A stretch of DNA of 64,000 nt from assembly GCF_002788215.1 (NCBI RefSeq), contig NZ_CP024845.1, positions 372,001 through 436,000 of the forward strand. The letters run 5' to 3'. A model generated the notes under the pieces. It made no database searches and had not been told where the DNA came from. It worked only from the letters and a program-made list of their open reading frames with translations. This stretch comes from Halohasta litchfieldiae. Lineage in GTDB: Archaea; Halobacteriota; Halobacteria; Halobacteriales; Haloferacaceae. Position numbers and translations under genes: made by a program. Below, piece after piece: positions 21,952 through 32,266 of the stretch (within the stretch, counting starts at the first letter, position 1; every line of letters begins with the position of its first letter).

Positions 21952-23022
21952 TCACGTAGCCACCGAACCTTCTGAATTGCGTACATCAACCCACAGATGT
22001 AATGATTGATCCGCGTTGTCGGGCGTCGGCTGGGCCGGAGGAGTACCAATATAAAGCAGGTAGGTGACACGGAGGTCTTCTCCAGTAATCGCCGCGGTGA
22101 GGTTGTGTTCGGTACGCCACTCCTCTCCAGGTTCGACAACCGGTTTGAAAGTTGTCACCCGCTGTCGGTCGACGATCTCCGCTTTGTTGGTTTCTGGAAC
22201 CGTTGTGTTGTGTATCTCGACAATAATCGTGTACTCCGTCCCGACGTTCTCATTATTTTCTAGGCCGACGACGATCGGTTCGGGCTCACCGGCTACGAGA
22301 TCGCTCGGATACTCCTCGGCTACGAGTTCGCCCTCAGCAGTCTCTGTCAGGATATAAAAATCCGTAAACTGTTCTCCGTCGGGGGGCACAGCCACAGCGT
22401 AACCAATAGTACCGAAGGCGAAAACGACGCTAATCGCAAGGACAATCACGAGAACAGAATCAAGCCGCGTGTCCGGCTTCAAATTCTGTGTCCACATAGT
22501 GTCCATCCACTGTCGAAACGAGACGGTAAACTGTCTGTCTTCAGGGAGTTTCTGTCGACGATACGCGGCGAGCACCACTCCCACCAACGTAACTCCGGCG
22601 AGTGTGAAAATAACTGGAATCAGACGGATACCCCACGGTGTGAAACTGAGGCCAATCCCGGTGAGCGGGACGATGGCGATACTTGTCCCAAATGCTAAGG
22701 CGGCTCTTTCGATTCTGTCTATGCCGCCGGTGCCAGGCAAGCGAGCAGCCAACATATTACTTGCCTCTTCAGTAGTTGTCTCTTCAGCTTCGGGGTCGGC
22801 AGAAAGATATGATTCTGGAAACAGAACCGCAATAAACGCATACCCGGGAATGAAGGCCACGAAGGCCAGACCCAGAACGAATCTGAGGACAGACTCTCTG
22901 ACTGTCGGTAGCGAAACTGCGATAATCATCAGTATTGTGAATATTGCAGTTGCTACAAGATCTGCTGGTAGAGACTTCTTACAACCTACTAATAACTTTT
23001 TGAGGCCTTCACCAATAGCCAT
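21952..23022 (-). CDS. DUF1616 membrane protein
   Basis: A 356-aa protein with about five hydrophobic segments: two near residues 20-65, two near 108-155, one near 196-215, then a long extracellular-type C-terminal domain with several N-glycosylation sequons (NTT, NLT). The layout matches the archaeal DUF1616 family, often found beside S-layer glycosylation or polysaccharide genes. Function not established. Neighbouring broken ugd and ATP-grasp genes support an envelope-sugar locus. Confidence 0.75.
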   Translation of the reverse strand: MAIGEGLKKLLVGCKKSLPADLVATAIFTILMIIAVSLPTVRESVLRFVLGLAFVAFIPGYAFIAVLFPESYLSADPEAEETTTEEASNMLAARLPGTGGIDRIERAALAFGTSIAIVPLTGIGLSFTPWGIRLIPVIFTLAGVTLVGVVLAAYRRQKLPEDRQFTVSFRQWMDTMWTQNLKPDTRLDSVLVIVLAISVVFAFGTIGYAVAVPPDGEQFTDFYILTETAEGELVAEEYPSDLVAGEPEPIVVGLENNENVGTEYTIIVEIHNTTVPETNKAEIVDRQRVTTFKPVVEPGEEWRTEHNLTAAITGEDLRVTYLLYIGTPPAQPTPDNADQSLHLWVDVRNSEGSVAT

Positions 23023-23847
23023 TGTCAGCTAATCGACACCATCTGACAAAAGTGGTATCATCGAGCACATATATCTGGTATTAAATCTTTAACCTAACGG
23101 CATAGAAGTCGTTCATCTAATAGTTACTAAGTGAGTTTTTTCTCAATAACATATTTCAACCCACGGAGGAACGGACGTGGATCATCGGCCCGAAGGGTAT
23201 CGAACCGGGGCATGTCGTAACACGATCGAAGGACTGCATGTAGTTCCGTGGCTAGAGACGGTCGGTCGACCAGTGGAGACTCCTCTCGCAAAATACTGAG
23301 TAGATAGCCGAGTTCACCGTACAGCAGGTGGCTTCCGACGCCCACATCGTACTCGTGGTTGATCTTGGAACTCAATCCTTGCGTCGAGAGCCAATAGTAG
23401 TATGGAAAATCAGCCCCGGCTTGAACTGCACAAGGCAGCGACTGCCACATGCGCGGGTTGATTTCGGTCAACACGAACTCTCCGGTCTCTTTGTCCTCCA
23501 TGTACTCGATACACGCGAGGCCGTGGTACTCCAGACTGTCTAGTAGGGTTCGACCTGCCTCTTCGAGGGCCGGCATCGAGACCGCCTCACGGTAGACGCC
23601 GCCACCACCGATGTAGGAATCCCCCCGAATCTGACGGTGTTGGAACGTCGCCAGCGGCTGGCCGTGATCGTAGAGCGCGCCGAAGACGTACTCGTCGGCG
23701 CTCCGAATGTAATCCTGAACGATAGGGACGTGGTTCATCTCCTCGATAATCACCTCGACGTCGGGTGTCTCACCCGGATACAGATGCTTGATAGTATTCA
23801 CCTCGGCTACATCATGAGGACCAAACGATTCAATCGACTCTTCGGTC

Positions 23848-23855
23848 AATAAATT
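23848..23855. repeat. Left target-site duplication of the ISH6 element
   Basis: AATAAATT, identical to 25300-25307, directly adjoining the IS end. Confidence 0.85.
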
Positions 23856-25299
23856 GGTCGTGTCGCAAAGTCCTCTAGAGTTCAGTAGTAACTGACTCCC
23901 GTGAAGGCGGGGTTGCCTCTGGTGTCCAAACCGAGGTACCCCATGCACGCCACAATCGACGTGCGGTTCGAACTGAGTATCGACGACGACAAAACGCTAC
24001 CGCTCGCCACGCTTGCCGAGGCCGTCACTGACCAGAACCTCGAAGCAGTCCTTCTCGAATCGCTGGTCGAGAGCCTCGACGCCGCCAGCGTCGAGGCGCT
24101 CTGTGGTGAGAAACACGCACATGGCAACGGTGACCAGCGCTTCCAACGCGCCGGCACCGACACCCGCACAGCTGTCACAACTGCCGGAGAACACGAGTTC
24201 TCTCTCCACTACGTCGAAGATACAGCCGCTTCCCCAGACGAATCCAGCTACTTCCGGCCCGTCGAAGACGTTCTCGACTTCGACGGGCAGAACCGCTATC
24301 AGCAGGACATCGCCGCCAAAAGCGTCGATCTCGCTACCTCGCTCAGCTATCGAGACGCTGCCAATCACGGCGACAGCTTCGTCTCGATGCCGTCGCCGAC
24401 CACCATCAACCGCCGTGCCAAGAAATACGGCCACAAGCTCAAACAGTTCCTTCCAGACTGTGTCGCTGGCACAGACGCTGACGCCGTCATTCCTGACGGG
24501 ACAAAGTGCCACAGCCAAGACGACGACCGCTCGTCCCACTCCGTCCAAGCAACGCTCGGCGAAGACACCGCCGAAGAGTCACGCTCCCTGCTGGATCTGT
24601 CGGTCAACGCTGACTGGGACGAAACTGCCGCCGAACTCGATGATATCGGCGCAGTCACTGACGACGCGACGGTCGTCAGTGACGCTGATAGCGGCATCGT
24701 CACAGCCTTTACCGACGAAAACCGTGACCACCAGCTCGATCTCGTCCACGTCGGCCGAACGCTGGGTTACACCCTCTGGGACGATGGCGTCTTCTCCTTG
24801 GACCGTCGGAAGGAGATCGTTTCGGAGGTGATCGACGAGGTGTTCCATCTGAAGAACTCTGTGGCGAAGCATCGTCCAGCGGAGGAGTTCGCGGCGATCC
24901 GCTCGCGGATCGCGCGAACGAGAGAGCGATTAGAGAAGACAGCGTGGCAACTGGAGCAGTTCGGGTCAGCAAAGGCTGCAGGGTATCTTCGGCGGTGGCT
25001 GCCGTCGATTGTGACGTTCGCCGAGCACGCTGTCGAGGGGTTCGAGGTTCCGTGGACCTCGAACCCCGTCGAACGACTGATGGGCGAGGTCAGCAAGCGG
25101 TGCAAGAACCAGTGGATGCGCTGGACAGCAGAGGGATTGGAAGCGATACTCCAACTTCGGTTGGTGAAGTACGCCGACCCCGAGTACTACCAAGCGTTCC
25201 TCGACGAACTGCTCCAACGTTCGACCAAAACAGCAATCAACTGTGACCTCTCAATTGAGAGTACCAGCGGCAAAGTCTAGACCGCTTTGCAACACGACC
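23856..25299 (+). mobile_element. ISH6-family insertion sequence
   Basis: 1444 bp with terminal inverted repeats GGTCGTGTCGCAAAG (23856-23870) and the complement of GGTCGTGTTGCAAAG (25285-25299), flanked by a perfect 8-bp duplication AATAAATT. Length, terminal sequence and duplication size match ISH6. The clean duplication and intact transposase point to a recent insertion. Confidence 0.9.
23943..25280 (+). CDS. ISH6-family transposase
   Basis: A 445-aa protein (ATG 23943, MHATIDVRFELSIDDD). It has the Mutator-like layout of ISH6 proteins: DGTKCHSQDDDRS (first Asp), VVSDADSGI (second Asp), VPWTSNPVERLMGEVSKRCK (Glu region near residue 375-390). A longer in-frame start at 23901 adds 14 residues not typical of the family. 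Stop at 25278-25280, inside the right inverted-repeat zone. Confidence 0.88.
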   Translation: MHATIDVRFELSIDDDKTLPLATLAEAVTDQNLEAVLLESLVESLDAASVEALCGEKHAHGNGDQRFQRAGTDTRTAVTTAGEHEFSLHYVEDTAASPDESSYFRPVEDVLDFDGQNRYQQDIAAKSVDLATSLSYRDAANHGDSFVSMPSPTTINRRAKKYGHKLKQFLPDCVAGTDADAVIPDGTKCHSQDDDRSSHSVQATLGEDTAEESRSLLDLSVNADWDETAAELDDIGAVTDDATVVSDADSGIVTAFTDENRDHQLDLVHVGRTLGYTLWDDGVFSLDRRKEIVSEVIDEVFHLKNSVAKHRPAEEFAAIRSRIARTRERLEKTAWQLEQFGSAKAAGYLRRWLPSIVTFAEHAVEGFEVPWTSNPVERLMGEVSKRCKNQWMRWTAEGLEAILQLRLVKYADPEYYQAFLDELLQRSTKTAINCDLSIESTSGKV

Positions 25300-25307
25300 A
25301 ATAAATT
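25300..25307. repeat. Right target-site duplication of the ISH6 element
   Basis: AATAAATT, the second copy of the 8-bp duplication made on insertion into the ATP-grasp gene. Confidence 0.85.
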
Positions 25308-26034
25308 GAACCGGGATTTGACTATGAGTTCTGGGCTCCAATCGTCGACATCTGTTACTAGCCTGGTGTGAGGGACGGCAACGTCTGCTGATTCGGCTGC
25401 CGCTGCGAGCTGCAACCGGTCGGTAACAGTCTCAAGTAGGTCGGACGAGGGTGTGGTCAGCGAGACGTGAGGATCAAACAAGTCGTTGTACCGTGCAAAC
25501 AGATACGCATCGTGGGGTCGTACAGGGAGTATCGTCTCTACATCCCGGCGAGAAGCAATGTCGAGCAGGGCATCCCTATAGGCGAGTATATTTTGCTTTG
25601 GAGATGGGATTTGAATCTGTTCGTCACAGAATCGTGATGCACCTGCCGCAACTTCAGCCTCTATCGAAGCCAAAATTGTGTGGATCCCTTGTTTCGACAG
25701 TGATCGCACACAGGAGTAACTCCTCGAATCGAGACCAGCCGGTATGCAAACAGATTGCTTGTTTTTAATTCTAGAGACCATAATACAGTTTCTCAGTTCC
25801 AATCTCATTAGTATCAAGTCCTTACCTAATTTACACGATTAGCGGCTAATAGAGATCAGAGTATGGGGCAGCCTAGCATGCCGCGTGGCACATTTTCAAC
25901 AGAGGAGAATTCCCATCGTATACTGGGTGTGAGTTCCAGTTCACGACAGTGAGAACGGGCTCTAGTATCTCATCGCCAGTAGCTATCTGGGTGACGAAAC
26001 ACAAACTCAAATACATGATTTTTATCACATTTAT

Positions 26035-26077
26035 TGAGTAAGTATTTTTCATTTCAAACTGTTACAATGAGTAAGTA
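26035..26077. promoter_or_regulatory. Two TGAGTAAGTA direct repeats, 33 bp apart
   Basis: TGAGTAAGTA at 26035-26044 and 26068-26077, spaced 33 bp, about three helical turns. The second forms GAGTA-AG-TACTC, a small inverted repeat. They lie about 150-190 bp before the HTH gene, so they could be operator sites, but this is position-based inference. Confidence 0.3.
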
Positions 26078-26101
26078 CTCAAATAGAACTGTTCTCTCAA
26101 A

Positions 26102-26158
26102 TCAGCTGGGGAACGGCTGAAAGGACGAATCGTTCCGCAGTGGAACGAGAGCCTGCAG
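26102..26158 (+). repeat. Left copy of a 57-nt double-hairpin repeat (possible attL or structured RNA)
   Basis: Hairpin 1: TCAGCTG (26102-26108), loop GGGAA, CGGCTGA (26114-26120). A 9-nt linker AAGGACGAA, then hairpin 2: TCGTTCC (26130-26136), loop GCAGT, GGAACGA (26142-26148), then tail GAGCCTGCAG. The second copy is at 28959-29015 in the same orientation, 51 of 57 positions identical. In stem 1 the T-G wobble here corresponds to C-G there, keeping pairing while the loop differs. Confidence 0.7.
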
Positions 26159-26223
26159 TGTCCAAGATTATGCCGCTTGATTGATGCCAACGTTTATTGT
26201 TTCGAGTTTCGTAACTCTATACA

Positions 26224-26841
26224 ATGAGTTACGATACAGAACATGTGCGTAATGCGGGCAACGGTCCCGCGATGATTACTGGGCTTCCTACCTTCACAGA
26301 CCTACTCACAAATGCGAACCTCGCTGAGCTGTACACCGCTATTCGCCAGTCGCCAGGTGTGACTGCTCCCGAACTCATCGATCAAGTAGCGGTCTCAAAA
26401 AAGACCGTCTACGAGTATCTACATAGGTTAGAACGTGCAGGGCTAATCAGTGAAACAGAAAATAGCGGTGGTACAAGTGCGTACGACGCAGAGGAGTTCG
26501 AACTGACGCTCACAATTCGTGGGATAGAGATAACGATCACCCCCAAGCTCGTTGCAGTCATCGCACAGTCTGATGAATATCCAATTATCAAGCGTGTCTG
26601 TGACGAACACGGATTTGTGACATTCGCACTTGCTCACGATCTGATCAACGCACATAGCGACGGCGATGTCACGATCCGACAAATCGGTACGCTGACCGAC
26701 CTTTCACACGGAACAACTTATGATCTCGTCGAGGCACTCTACGAGATTCACGATCTCGGTGGCGACGATCCGAGCCCAACGACATATACTCCCGATGACG
26801 TGGTCGACGACGATCTACAGTCAGAGTTGGCCGACGAATAG
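26224..26841 (+). CDS. Winged-helix regulator, probable antitoxin partner of the PIN protein
   Basis: A 205-aa protein with an N-terminal winged helix (residues about 30-85: SPGVTAPELIDQVAVSKKTVYEYLHRLERAGLISE), a beta hairpin and an acidic C-terminal tail. The C-terminal half (about 115-175) looks like a second HTH-like helical unit. The stop TAG is followed directly by the ATG of the PIN-like gene with no spacer, a tight toxin-antitoxin-like pairing. The regulator probably binds the PIN protein or autoregulates; this is inferred from arrangement. Confidence 0.6.
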   Translation: MSYDTEHVRNAGNGPAMITGLPTFTDLLTNANLAELYTAIRQSPGVTAPELIDQVAVSKKTVYEYLHRLERAGLISETENSGGTSAYDAEEFELTLTIRGIEITITPKLVAVIAQSDEYPIIKRVCDEHGFVTFALAHDLINAHSDGDVTIRQIGTLTDLSHGTTYDLVEALYEIHDLGGDDPSPTTYTPDDVVDDDLQSELADE

Positions 26842-27417
26842 ATGCCTCGGTCAGAGCAACTGTACACGGCGAATATTGTGGATACAGTTATCTTCCGGAG
26901 TCTGGGTAAATCACCAAGTCCTCAGTTACGGTCGTTGAAACAAGCCGTCGCTGAGGCGGATACAGAACTCTGGGTTTCACCATCGATCTACCGTGAGCTG
27001 ACGAACTATGGGGAAGATCCTCCGAGAAATCCATATCTTGATACAGGCATCAAGGAAGGATGGATTCGCGTCGCAACTCCGCTACCGAATAATCGGAATT
27101 CGGCATTTGACTCGGTTACTGACCCTGTTGAACAAGCACAGCATCTCGCAGACGAATATTTGAACCAACAGAGCAAGTATCCAAATACCAATAACTGGCG
27201 AGACGCATCTGTGGTTGCGTTGGCTGTACGATTGTTTGAACAAAACACTCGAATCCGCGTTATCACTCACACAGCAGATAAGACTCTGGCTCAGGCTTGC
27301 GCCCGTATTCCGCCTGAATTTGGATACTACGATATTGAATCACGGTACTACAACCCACCACAGAAAGCAAAAAAACAGTTCCCGACCGTCGAATCACTTT
27401 CTTGGAGTAGCCAATAG
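26842..27417 (+). CDS. PIN-domain-like putative ribonuclease toxin
   Basis: A 191-aa protein with spaced acidic residues of a PIN fold: IVDTVIFRS near residue 14 (first Asp), IYRELTN near 52 (Glu), WRDASVVALAVRL near 118 (Asp), and VITHTADKTLAQACARI near 138-152 (final Asp after the T-H-T strand). PIN toxins are Mg-dependent RNases, many cleaving tRNA or rRNA. Starts directly at the stop of the HTH gene. GC is lower than in core genes nearby. No catalytic test can be made from sequence alone. Confidence 0.6.
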   Translation: MPRSEQLYTANIVDTVIFRSLGKSPSPQLRSLKQAVAEADTELWVSPSIYRELTNYGEDPPRNPYLDTGIKEGWIRVATPLPNNRNSAFDSVTDPVEQAQHLADEYLNQQSKYPNTNNWRDASVVALAVRLFEQNTRIRVITHTADKTLAQACARIPPEFGYYDIESRYYNPPQKAKKQFPTVESLSWSSQ

Positions 27418-27550
27418 CGAATGTGGTCCTGAAGGATCCTGTTGGAATACTAATTAACTCACATTTTTGTTCTCCGTGCTATACACAGAGGCTACATTTC
27501 TCGGGCTACCGGCATCAGACTTTTTTCAATTGGACTGCTCGGCTAATAGT

Positions 27551-27829
27551 ATGGTAGATGATCCAACGATTCCTCTCGGAGATATTCGACAGAGAGATCC
27601 CGGAAGCGACCGGCAAGGAGCGTTCAAACGAGGCTGGACAGCAGCTGTGAAAGATCTCAATGACGATGGAGAATCATCAAAATATTCTGAGGGTCCACCA
27701 CCAGAAACCCTTACGTGGGATAATCTCGGGTACCGCCTTGGAAGCATATTTGGCGAAACAGACGATGACCAGCGACAGAGACTATTTGATTGGTGTAAAG
27801 AGAAACAAAAACGAGAACGAGAGTCCTAA
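27551..27829 (+). CDS. Small hypothetical protein in the HTH/PIN element
   Basis: A 92-aa very hydrophilic protein starting MVDDPTIPLGDIRQRDPGSD, with ETLTWDNLGYRLGSIFGETD in the middle and a charged helical end (LFDWCKEKQKRERES). ATG 27551 is chosen because the longer reading begins in non-coding-like sequence. I recognise no family. It lies between the PIN gene and the integrase, convergent with the latter (59 bp). Confidence 0.5.
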   Translation: MVDDPTIPLGDIRQRDPGSDRQGAFKRGWTAAVKDLNDDGESSKYSEGPPPETLTWDNLGYRLGSIFGETDDDQRQRLFDWCKEKQKRERES

Positions 27830-27888
27830 TTGACGAAGTTCTGTGCTGTATTCGCGTTCGCAGTCTTACAGCCGCGATGAAGAGCGAA

Positions 27889-28899
27889 TTATATATTATT
27901 TAAATATTTTCGGCGCTGCTCCATTTTGTCTTGTTCACTTCGCTTATCGTAGTGTGTGTCAAGCACATCTTTCGATACATTAGCCCGATCACTTACAATA
28001 TCTTTCGGGACATCACAATTGAGATGGTGAGAGATTCCTCCTCGCCGCAATGCATGTGGACTCACGCTCGATGGGCACTCGGATTCAGACCCATATTCGG
28101 CGGCATCACAGTCAGAAATAGAGCGATCATGCGGACACTCACCAGTGTACTCGCACGGGCGGGTACTCCGGTAGCAATCTCCTCTGAGGGTGGTGATGTG
28201 TGCACGTCCCTGACTTGTGGATTCCAGTGGTTGACGCCCTTTCTCATCCGTTATACTGGGTCGACGGTCAGAAATCCAGCTATCGAGTAACTCACTGATC
28301 GACTCTGAGAGGGCAACGTGTCGTTCTCCACCCTCTGCATTCTTGATCGGCGTTTTTGTCTCTGGCCGATGAACTACTTCGAGATATTGACCATCACTAT
28401 TGTAGTCCTCAAGATCCAGCGAATGAATCGCACCAACACGCATCATTGTGTGCCACATTAGCGAGACGACGATATGCGGTCGTGATGCATACTCATACTT
28501 GCCGAAGTAACTGAGTATCTGCTCTGCTCGCTCCGTCTCCAGCATTTCTGTCCGGACATTGTCACCGGAGCTCAGAGTTGGCGAGAGAACCTTGGTATGG
28601 AGGTCAGGTTCGACGGCATCGATTGATTCGAGCCACCTGATGAACACACGGAGTGTATCCATCTGTGTCTTTTCCGTCACAACGCCGATGTCGCCCTCAT
28701 CACGTCGCCATAGACGATACTGGTGTAGCATGCGGCCAGTGAGCTGATTGAGGTTCCCAACCTCATTCTCATCGCACCATCGGACAAAGTGGCTGAGTCG
28801 TGAACGGTGAGAGTACAGGGTTGCTTGTGCGACCTCATTCTCGCGGTCAGTTAGATACATTTCGAGTGCTGTCTCGGGTGCGATTGGTTCGAGCTTCAT
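27889..28899 (-). CDS. Tyrosine-type site-specific recombinase (integrase)
   Basis: A 336-aa protein with a SAM-like N-terminal DNA-binding domain (residues 1-95, LYSHRSRLSHFVRWCDENEV) and a catalytic domain. Visible catalytic residues: Arg in MMRVGAIHSLDL near 153, HALRRGG (His-x-x-Arg) near 284-290, and Tyr in DTHYDKRSEQDK near 317. Between them is a Cys-rich insertion (CEYTGECPHD...CDAAEY...ECPSS) that may bind zinc. It starts 59 bp inside the right double-hairpin repeat, as integrases commonly sit beside an att site. Confidence 0.82.
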   Translation of the reverse strand: MKLEPIAPETALEMYLTDRENEVAQATLYSHRSRLSHFVRWCDENEVGNLNQLTGRMLHQYRLWRRDEGDIGVVTEKTQMDTLRVFIRWLESIDAVEPDLHTKVLSPTLSSGDNVRTEMLETERAEQILSYFGKYEYASRPHIVVSLMWHTMMRVGAIHSLDLEDYNSDGQYLEVVHRPETKTPIKNAEGGERHVALSESISELLDSWISDRRPSITDEKGRQPLESTSQGRAHITTLRGDCYRSTRPCEYTGECPHDRSISDCDAAEYGSESECPSSVSPHALRRGGISHHLNCDVPKDIVSDRANVSKDVLDTHYDKRSEQDKMEQRRKYLNNI

Positions 28900-28958
28900 T
28901 ATTGATCTCCTCTGAATCGGAGAAAGGCCCGATTTACCCCAATCTCAAACCATTCAAA

Positions 28959-29015
28959 TCAGCCGACAGACGGCTGAAAGGACAAATCGTTCCGCAGTGG
29001 AACGAGAGCCTGCAG
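28959..29015 (+). repeat. Right copy of the 57-nt double-hairpin repeat (possible attR)
   Basis: Hairpin 1: TCAGCCG (28959-28965), loop ACAGA, CGGCTGA (28971-28977). Linker AAGGACAAA, hairpin 2: TCGTTCC (28987-28993), GCAGT, GGAACGA (28999-29005), tail GAGCCTGCAG. Direct repeat of 26102-26158; the last 30 nt are identical between copies. Confidence 0.7.
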
Positions 29016-29076
29016 CGCCCATTCAGTTTTTCGGCAGTCTAATCGCAAGACAGCGTCGAGTCTATATCCCGGGAAA

Positions 29077-29451
29077 TCACAGTGCCGTTACTTTCGTTTG
29101 ATAATCGAACAGAGAGTAAACTCTCTGAGATCCATAGCCAGCGGTTTCAGCGCAGTTGGCGAGTCTGTCGAAGAAATCAAAACTCTCTGCAAGAACTCGG
29201 AGCCGAAGGGTGGCTGATTCGGTTTGGTGGCACTGCTCTTCGATCTGGTCGGTTAGTGTGGCGACTTTCTCGCGGCTCGCTTCAGGGAGTGCCAACGGAA
29301 CCCGGCTAGGCTCGTCGACGACGGTTTGGGGTTTGATTGCCGGTCGCTCATCGGTTCTCCCTGCTTGCTGTGTCTCTTTATATATATCGAGGATCGCATC
29401 GATACGGCGCAGTTCGTCGAGGAGGTGGGCTTGAGTATTGGTGTAGGCCAT
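29077..29451 (-). pseudogene. Remnant of a haloarchaeal AAA ATPase N-terminus (eCIS-associated type?)
   Basis: A 125-codon fragment starting MAYTNTQAHLLDELRRIDAILDIY, then a gap and ASREKVATLTDQIEEQCHQTE...LRLRVLAESFDFFDRL. This recalls the N-terminal helical part of large AAA+ ATPases found in haloarchaeal contractile-injection-system loci (pattern LDELxRIDLLL... RLRRLxxRFDLxxxH). No Walker motifs remain, and the end (GYGSQRVYSLFDYQTK) looks decayed. Assignment is from memory of that family, so modest. Confidence 0.35.
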
Positions 29452-29545
29452 GATTCTATCGTGAATGAGAGCGTCGACTGGACGAACATGTGCTCGCACG
29501 AATATTTATAATTCATTGAGAGGCAAGCATCGGTAAATCGGACTC

Positions 29546-29865
29546 ATGGTATACAGATCATCGCACCGAAACGAGAACGCCTCGGATACAGAGACGGGGG
29601 TGACGACGAGTCGGGTCGCAAATCGCACCGCAGCGGATTCGACATCCGCGACAGGCAGCTCTGGTCACGGCAGGCGACTATCGAAGAGACTGAAGCCTAT
29701 TTCGGGATGGAAGTCCCGGACACAGACACCGTCTTTCGCCTCCAGCGGCTCGAATCGATGAACACGACTGAGCGTGTTCGTGGCTGGGTCAATGAAGGAA
29801 TGATCGTCGAAGATATCGGTAATCCCCTCTCGATAGTTAGCACAACAACGACAGACTCCGGCTGA
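29546..29865 (+). pseudogene. Remnant of an eCIS core-domain (DUF4157-like) protein N-terminus
   Basis: Begins ATG 29546 (MVYRSSHRNENASDTETGVT) in one frame, then protein-like coding continues in a second frame: RQATIEETEAYFGMEVPDTD, VFRLQRLESMNTTERVRGWV, NEGMIVEDIGNP, ending at TGA 29863-29865. The second part matches my memory of haloarchaeal eCIS core (DUF4157) proteins, whose zinc-protease-like core would come later and is absent. Divergent from the AAA ATPase remnant 94 bp away, which fits a decayed eCIS locus. Confidence 0.4.
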
Positions 29866-30013
29866 TACCAGCTCTGCTGGTAAATTTGGTGTTCCCGATC
29901 CAGTTCGGGATATGATCTCGTCGACTGGAAGCAGAACGCGGTAGATAGCGTATTTAGTCGCCGTTGAGCGGTAAACTATTCACCAGTCAAGTCAACAATA
30001 GGTGGTCTGCTCG
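29866..30013. other. Short intergenic region with a hairpin
   Basis: TACCAG (29866-29871) and CTGGTA (29877-29882) form a 6-bp stem over a CTCTG loop immediately at the end of the preceding remnant. The rest shows no gene; it separates the remnant from the end of the malic enzyme gene. Confidence 0.4.

Positions 30014-32266
<2,253 letters not shown>

What the first reader, a model, noticed from the sequence alone, without database searches (positions are those of the whole stretch)
29077..29865. Debris resembling a contractile injection system (eCIS) locus
A fragment like the N-terminus of eCIS-type AAA ATPases lies divergent from a frameshifted fragment like the N-terminus of haloarchaeal DUF4157/eCIS core proteins. 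Finding both next to each other and beside the integrase segment suggests a lost eCIS island.
Basis: partly seen in the sequence, partly recalled or inferred. Interest (0 to 1): 0.5.

Follow-up and report, generated by a model that had tools for sequence, protein, structure and literature searches.

The report
Decayed archaeal injection-system cargo module
This stretch is the broken remains of a gene pair, a probable loading ATPase and a toxin-carrier protein, belonging to a known syringe-like weapon of salt-loving archaea; an intact version of the pair and the syringe genes sit elsewhere in the same genome, so the fragment is an ordinary genetic fossil.

Summary
Window 29169-29836 aligns at 82% DNA identity with the divergent promoter and N-termini of an intact gene pair 112 kb away: an AAA ATPase with a PF22977 N-terminus, and an eCIS_core (DUF4157) protein. 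The window copy is dead: the ATPase is cut after about 96 codons, and the DUF4157 gene is frameshifted, internally deleted and lacks its domain.

The "lost eCIS island" reading is partly right. The genome keeps a structural injection cluster at 2.125-2.145 Mb. The integrase belongs to a separate repeat-bounded 2.9-kb element, and the remnant lies outside it. What decayed is most simply a satellite cargo module. In 24 of 40 ATPase-bearing haloarchaeal genomes a module lies within 15 kb of the sheath gene; here all three lie 0.2-1.7 Mb away. A congener has another ATPase fragment beside an intact DUF4157 gene. A published study shows that a haloarchaeal system acts as a T6SS with DUF4157 toxins and downstream immunity genes (PMC11566945). 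Ordinary remnant of a known kind.

The parts
29164..29451 (-). Remnant of the AAA ATPase gene: codons 1 to about 96 from MAYTNT (N-terminal PF22977 region); the AAA domain is gone
   Evidence: PF22977 hit; 72-76% identity to the intact ATPase; DNA match
29137..29174 (-). Possible second ATPase piece (about residues 250-265 of the intact protein) left after an internal deletion; suggestive only
   Evidence: blastn 76% over 38 bp, E 4.8e-4, same strand and order; 4 of 500 shuffles reach the score
29452..29545 (.). Divergent intergenic (promoter) region; 29499-29531 is identical over 33 bp to the intact 513-kb locus and holds a TTTATAA box
   Evidence: alignments
29546..29661 (+). Remnant of the DUF4157 protein gene, N-terminal stretch in the first frame
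29662..29836 (+). Continuation of the DUF4157 gene in another frame (frameshift), 81% identical over 58 residues to the intact protein
29876..29929 (+). Last recognisable piece of the DUF4157 gene (GVPDPVRDMISSTG motif just before the domain), after an internal deletion of roughly 70-85 bp
   Evidence: 0 of 500 shuffles
26097..29015 (.). Neighbour, not part of the remnant: 2.9-kb element bounded by a 62-bp direct repeat (26097-26158 and 28954-29015) carrying HTH 26224-26841, ORF 26842-27417, ORF 27467-27829 and tyrosine integrase 27889-28899

Best explanation
The stretch is a decayed, non-functional copy of a cargo module of the haloarchaeal contractile injection system (eCIS-like; shown in relatives to work as an archaeal T6SS). 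An intact module has a divergent promoter region with an AAA ATPase gene on one side and, on the other, a DUF4157 protein gene followed by a partner gene of about 319 aa, sometimes in tandem repeats. Inferred mechanism: the ATPase recognises the N-terminal part of the DUF4157 cargo and helps load it onto the injection machine; the cargo's C-terminus is the toxin, and the partner protein is immunity. In this genome one module is intact (513 kb), one has an ATPase split between frames (2.35 Mb), and the window copy has lost everything beyond both N-termini by frameshift and deletions. Shown here: homology, decay, module architecture, co-occurrence with the sheath. Inferred: the loading, toxin and immunity roles in this species.
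For: 82% DNA identity across promoter and both N-termini to the intact pair at 513 kb; domains of the intact genes; a divergent ATPase/DUF4157 pair at 9 of 11 intact or split ATPase loci examined in seven genomes, at a further locus with a truncated ATPase, and on an annotated Haloferax larsenii plasmid next to tube and sheath genes. ATPase in 40, sheath in 41, both in 38 of 292 genomes. Frameshift and internal deletion in the window. dN/dS of remnant against the 513-kb copy 0.30, bootstrap 0.18-0.48, 154 codons, which suggests that much of the divergence arose while both were constrained. Partner divergence follows the toxin C-terminus (Mantel r 0.61, P 1e-4, 11 pairs; r 0.55, P 0.008, 9 non-redundant) and not the DUF4157 part (r 0.23, P 0.14; r 0.09, P 0.34). 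PMC11566945 (passages; section 11) reports toxins, several with DUF4157, whose toxicity is prevented by the downstream gene, and two toxin-immunity pairs away from the cluster.
Against: No trace of the toxin C-terminus or partner gene above noise survives in window 23000-31000, so that part of the original module is inferred. The second ATPase piece is only suggestive. At 2 of 11 ATPase loci (G002 C39, G037 C8) no DUF4157 or partner gene was found in the 20-40 kb examined. The link of the module to a machine is not absolute: 2 of 40 ATPase genomes have no sheath hit and 3 of 41 sheath genomes no ATPase hit; G101, G110, G214 and G266 have eCIS_core and partner matches without ATPase or sheath hits, and 11 genomes have weak partner-family matches only, which the immunity role does not explain. 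Orthology of the partner family to the tested H. borinquense immunity genes could not be checked.
Confidence: 0.88

Rival explanations
1. One reading: a whole eCIS island, structural genes included, once stood here and was lost, with the neighbouring integrase as its mobility gene.
For: The ATPase lies within 15 kb of the sheath gene in 24 of 40 genomes with a detected ATPase, so an island could have carried it.
Against: No structural gene trace in the window; the genome keeps a structural cluster elsewhere; the integrase element is bounded by its own repeats ending at 29015; in this genome and in G003 the detected ATPases are 0.2 Mb or more from the sheath, and in G001 and G002 on other contigs.
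Confidence: 0.07
2. Only the short promoter and N-terminal segment was copied here from the 513-kb module by recombination, never a whole module.
For: The strong match is one block of about 670 bp.
Against: A separate collinear piece of the DUF4157 gene survives beyond the block (0 of 500 shuffles) and possibly one of the ATPase (4 of 500), showing a longer original; dN/dS of 0.30, upper bound 0.48, seems low for a fragment that was dead from the start, though no mixture model was fitted.
Confidence: 0.1
3. The remnant still works, as a short protein or as an orphan divergent promoter.
For: A 33-bp promoter core is identical to the intact locus; the ATPase N-terminal frame is still open; a congener (G002 C77) also keeps about 72 ATPase codons, there beside an intact DUF4157 gene.
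Against: In the window the DUF4157 gene is itself broken, so the promoter has nothing intact to drive on that side; the ATPase frame ends in a tail that matches the intact gene at most over a short suggestive piece. In the G002 case retention may be explained by the intact DUF4157 gene next to it.
Confidence: 0.03
4. Chance resemblance.
For: None found.
Against: blastn E 2.9e-163; Pfam hit over cut-off.
Confidence: 0.001

Closest known systems
Archaeal T6SS / contractile injection system of Halogeometricum borinquense (Zachs et al. 2024, PMC11566945; passages and section 11 seen)
   Same: Haloarchaeal structural cluster; interspacing region with DUF4157 proteins and downstream partners; two toxin-immunity pairs elsewhere in the genome; an ATPase named in the legend of the cluster figure
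   Different: Here the ATPase/DUF4157 modules lie 0.2-1.7 Mb from the structural cluster and the window copy is a pseudogene pair; sequences were not compared directly
Injection cluster of Haloferax larsenii plasmid pHl5678-1 (NZ_CP078064.1)
   Same: Divergent AAA ATPase / DUF4157 pair with partner genes (the two nearest 41-44% identical to the 513-kb partner), next to tube and sheath
   Different: Module sits inside the structural cluster and its ATPase is intact
Pvc15 ATPase of the Photorhabdus virulence cassette (PMC11495950, abstract seen)
   Same: AAA ATPase that loads cargo carrying an N-terminal signal; the likely functional analogue
   Different: Homology and loading were not tested here; bacterial eCIS

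Membership tests
Haloarchaeal CIS cargo module (ATPase / DUF4157 pair) | N-terminal PF22977 domain of the ATPase | tested here: met
   E 8.6e-9, 35.8 bits over cut-off 27, profile positions 9-106 of 221
Haloarchaeal CIS cargo module (ATPase / DUF4157 pair) | AAA ATPase domain PF00004 | tested here: not met
   Absent from the window remnant, present in the intact paralogue: a pseudogene, not a working member
Haloarchaeal CIS cargo module (ATPase / DUF4157 pair) | eCIS_core / DUF4157 domain PF13699 | tested here: not met
   Not in the window ORFs; whole-genome search finds it only at 514176 and 2347661; the upstream part of the same protein is present
Haloarchaeal CIS cargo module (ATPase / DUF4157 pair) | Divergent ATPase-promoter-DUF4157 order | tested here: met
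   seen at 9 of 11 other ATPase loci
Haloarchaeal CIS cargo module (ATPase / DUF4157 pair) | Partner gene of about 319 aa downstream of the DUF4157 gene | tested here: not met
   No match above noise in window 23000-31000
Complete eCIS / archaeal T6SS locus | Sheath, tube, baseplate and spike genes at the locus | tested here: not met
   None in the window; present at 2.125-2.145 Mb
Complete eCIS / archaeal T6SS locus | Membrane-anchored, contact-dependent T6SS action or free eCIS particle | not testable with these tools
   Needs imaging; shown for relatives in PMC11566945
Integrase-borne island carrying the remnant | Remnant inside the repeat-bounded element | tested here: not met
   Repeats at 26097-26158 and 28954-29015; remnant starts at 29137 or 29164

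The most novel reading that the evidence does not exclude
In haloarchaea the ATPase plus DUF4157-toxin plus immunity module is an evolutionary unit separable from the injection machine: it multiplies, moves away from the structural cluster, swaps toxins and dies. ATPase copies decay first while the cargo stays (2.35 Mb here; G002 C77), because one intact ATPase can load for all cargo loci in trans from anywhere in the genome; the window holds a module in which the cargo gene has died too. The partners would be a fast-evolving immunity family, matched to toxin C-termini, whose predicted model found no solved fold in the search made.
Probability: 0.48. Interest if true: 0.45.

Novelty: new member of a known kind. 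Interest (0 to 1): 0.2.

Why it matters
The fragment itself matters little. Its relatives show that in 7 genomes with both genes on one contig, this one included, every detected ATPase lies 0.2-2.5 Mb from the sheath gene. Searches confined to the structural cluster would miss the loading ATPase and cargo there. The co-variation of partner and toxin C-terminus gives a testable immunity prediction for two proteins without a Pfam or NCBIfam match.

Tried and rejected
Considered that the integrase element was inserted inside the ATPase gene: no C-terminal ATPase trace above noise on its far side. Considered more ATPase sequence at 28900-29136 and more DUF4157 sequence at 29930-30013: shuffles reach the scores in 277 and 469 of 500. 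Considered a syntenic module next to the malic enzyme: five malic-enzyme loci of three congeners and the second copy of this genome show no eCIS gene at E 0.01 except one partner-protein hit (E 0.005, 44 residues), taken as chance. Considered that the transposase at 23901 moves the modules: it has at least 15 full copies (40 of 122 candidates scored), so lying near another module means little. The plasmid search with the window ORF found nothing. A Foldseek search of the partner model against the PDB gave 220 matches at E up to 10, none at E 0.001; the optional second aligner was not run. PADLOC hits of the ATPase (IetA, TRIP13, DolB) and of the DUF4157 protein (LeoBC, LeoB) were not followed. 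Counts: one of 63 ATPase rows (second piece of the split G182 gene) was dropped, leaving 62, the window remnant included. In some searches, 13 of 17 toxin-partner pairs seen were chosen by hand (fragmentary ones left out), 2 of the 13 lacked a detectable HExxH and were dropped, and 9 of the 11 were used in the non-redundant run. At most 8, 7 and 18 candidates per genome were scored, and the match lists were cut, so per-genome numbers are lower bounds.

Full report
What is there. The window is bases 372001-436000 of a 3.33-Mb genome in one contig. The first hits PF22977 over its cut-off.

Identity. DNA of 29169-29836 aligns at 82% (E 2.9e-163) with 513 kb of the same genome (one search gives 29172-29836 against 513341-514002). 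There an intact minus-strand ORF of 903 aa (PF22977 plus PF00004 AAA) diverges from a 450-aa protein with PF13699 eCIS_core, followed by a 319-aa protein without a Pfam or NCBIfam match. The window remnant keeps codons 1 to about 96 of the ATPase, the promoter region (33 identical bases at 29499-29531) and the N-terminal part of the DUF4157 gene, split by a frameshift. After a deletion of roughly 70-85 bp a last piece remains at 29876-29929, ending before the domain. A possible second ATPase piece at 29137-29174 is suggestive. Remnant and 513-kb copy differ with dN/dS 0.30 (bootstrap 0.18-0.48, 154 codons), which suggests that the two were separate working modules for part of their history; no formal mixture model was fitted.

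Other copies and the machine. A third pair lies at 2.344-2.349 Mb: DUF4157 protein and partner intact, ATPase split between frames (a sequencing error there is not excluded). A structural cluster lies at 2125418-2144991. Of its 13 ORFs, 10 were scanned against Pfam and 8 matched: Pvc16_N, CIS_tube/LysM, GPD, base_V, gp25, Baseplate_J, sheath and T4 gp19 tube. tblastn with the 513-kb ATPase found no homologue in 2105001-2165000 at E 0.001, and the ATPase profile finds three places in the genome, all named above (8 of 33 candidates scored). eCIS_core is found at two places.

Relatives. At 9 of 11 ATPase loci examined in seven genomes the ATPase diverges from a DUF4157 gene, usually followed by partner genes, in one to at least four tandem pairs; the exceptions are G002 C39 and G037 C8. 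In the congener G002 (contig C77) a further locus keeps about 72 ATPase codons and then loses the gene, while its divergent 447-aa DUF4157 gene is open. Together with the 2.35-Mb pair this shows ATPase decay beside a retained cargo gene at two other loci of the genus. In Natrinema altunense (contig-length match) and on a Haloferax larsenii plasmid the module sits within the structural cluster. In 292 Halobacteria-class genomes, 40 have the ATPase N-terminus, 41 a sheath and 38 both (Fisher P about 1e-41); relatedness makes that P too small. ATPase without sheath: G182, G196. Sheath without ATPase: G108, G149, G251. Of the 40, 24 have an ATPase within 15 kb of the sheath. Of the other 16, two lack a sheath hit, 7 have all detected ATPases 0.2-2.5 Mb away on the sheath's contig (G000, G003, G057, G085, G131, G187, G223), and 7 have ATPase and sheath on different contigs, where the distance is unknown. 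eCIS_core matches 52 of 292 genomes (48 over cut-off) and the partner family 47 of 292, so both are somewhat wider spread than ATPase and sheath.

The integrase. A 62-bp direct repeat (90% identical, core CGTTCCGCAGTGGAACG) at 26097-26158 and 28954-29015 encloses four genes including the tyrosine integrase 27889-28899. A 28-bp part of it occurs twice in this genome and in none of three congeners with up to 3 mismatches. This looks like attL/attR of a small integrative element (inference). The remnant lies outside it.

How the intact system probably works. PMC11566945 (passages; section 11; outline) shows in Halogeometricum borinquense a membrane-bound injection system with contact-dependent killing, five DUF4157 proteins secreted in a sheath-dependent way, and four toxins whose toxicity was prevented by the downstream gene; two of six putative pairs lie away from the cluster. 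PMC11495950 (abstract) describes the Pvc15 ATPase loading cargo through an N-terminal signal. PMC11297309 and PMC8213781 (passages) describe DUF4157 as an eCIS toxin marker. By analogy the ATPase loads DUF4157 cargo and the 319-aa partner is immunity. New support here: partner divergence follows the toxin C-terminus and not the DUF4157 part (11 pairs from 6 genomes, not independent). The predicted partner structure (mean pLDDT 85) has no PDB match at E 0.001. Against a strict immunity role stand 11 genomes with only weak partner-family matches and no ATPase, eCIS_core or sheath hit.

Verdict. The feature is most likely a dead satellite module of a known system. Five searches of an open-access library showed me no paper on detached ATPase/DUF4157 modules; this is not proof of absence, and PMC11566945 already notes detached toxin pairs.

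Noticed in passing
window 26097-29015: Small integrative element bounded by a 62-bp direct repeat whose 28-bp core occurs only twice in the genome, carrying an HTH gene, two ORFs without a Pfam match over cut-off and a tyrosine integrase.
   Followed up: partly
L016 6509-9093 (genome 2344508-2347092): Another ATPase of the genome is split between two frames while its divergent DUF4157 gene and partner gene are open: a younger stage of the same decay, or a sequencing error.
   Followed up: partly
L012 566-2237 (G002 C77): In a congener an ATPase fragment of about 72 codons faces an open 447-aa DUF4157 gene.
   Followed up: partly
L015 1046-2546 (genome 516045-517545): Downstream of the intact module lies a second, truncated DUF4157-partner pair; its partner gene is interrupted by an in-frame stop.
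   Followed up: partly
G196: A genome with 4 ATPase loci and 16 eCIS_core matches but no sheath match: cargo modules without a detected machine, or a sheath missing from the assembly.
   Followed up: no
G034, G038, G109, G115, G132, G145, G165, G169, G191, G287, G293: Weak partner-family matches (best E about 1e-15 to 4e-23) in genomes without a listed ATPase, eCIS_core or sheath match; a shared domain or another use of the family.
   Followed up: no
window 23901-25280: Transposase-like gene with at least 15 full, nearly identical copies in the genome; the stretch from about 19.8 to 29 kb looks like a zone of insertions.
   Followed up: partly
window 26224-27417: HTH gene directly followed by a 191-aa ORF that looks PIN-like by eye (recalled resemblance; no Pfam hit), perhaps a toxin-antitoxin pair.
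   Followed up: no
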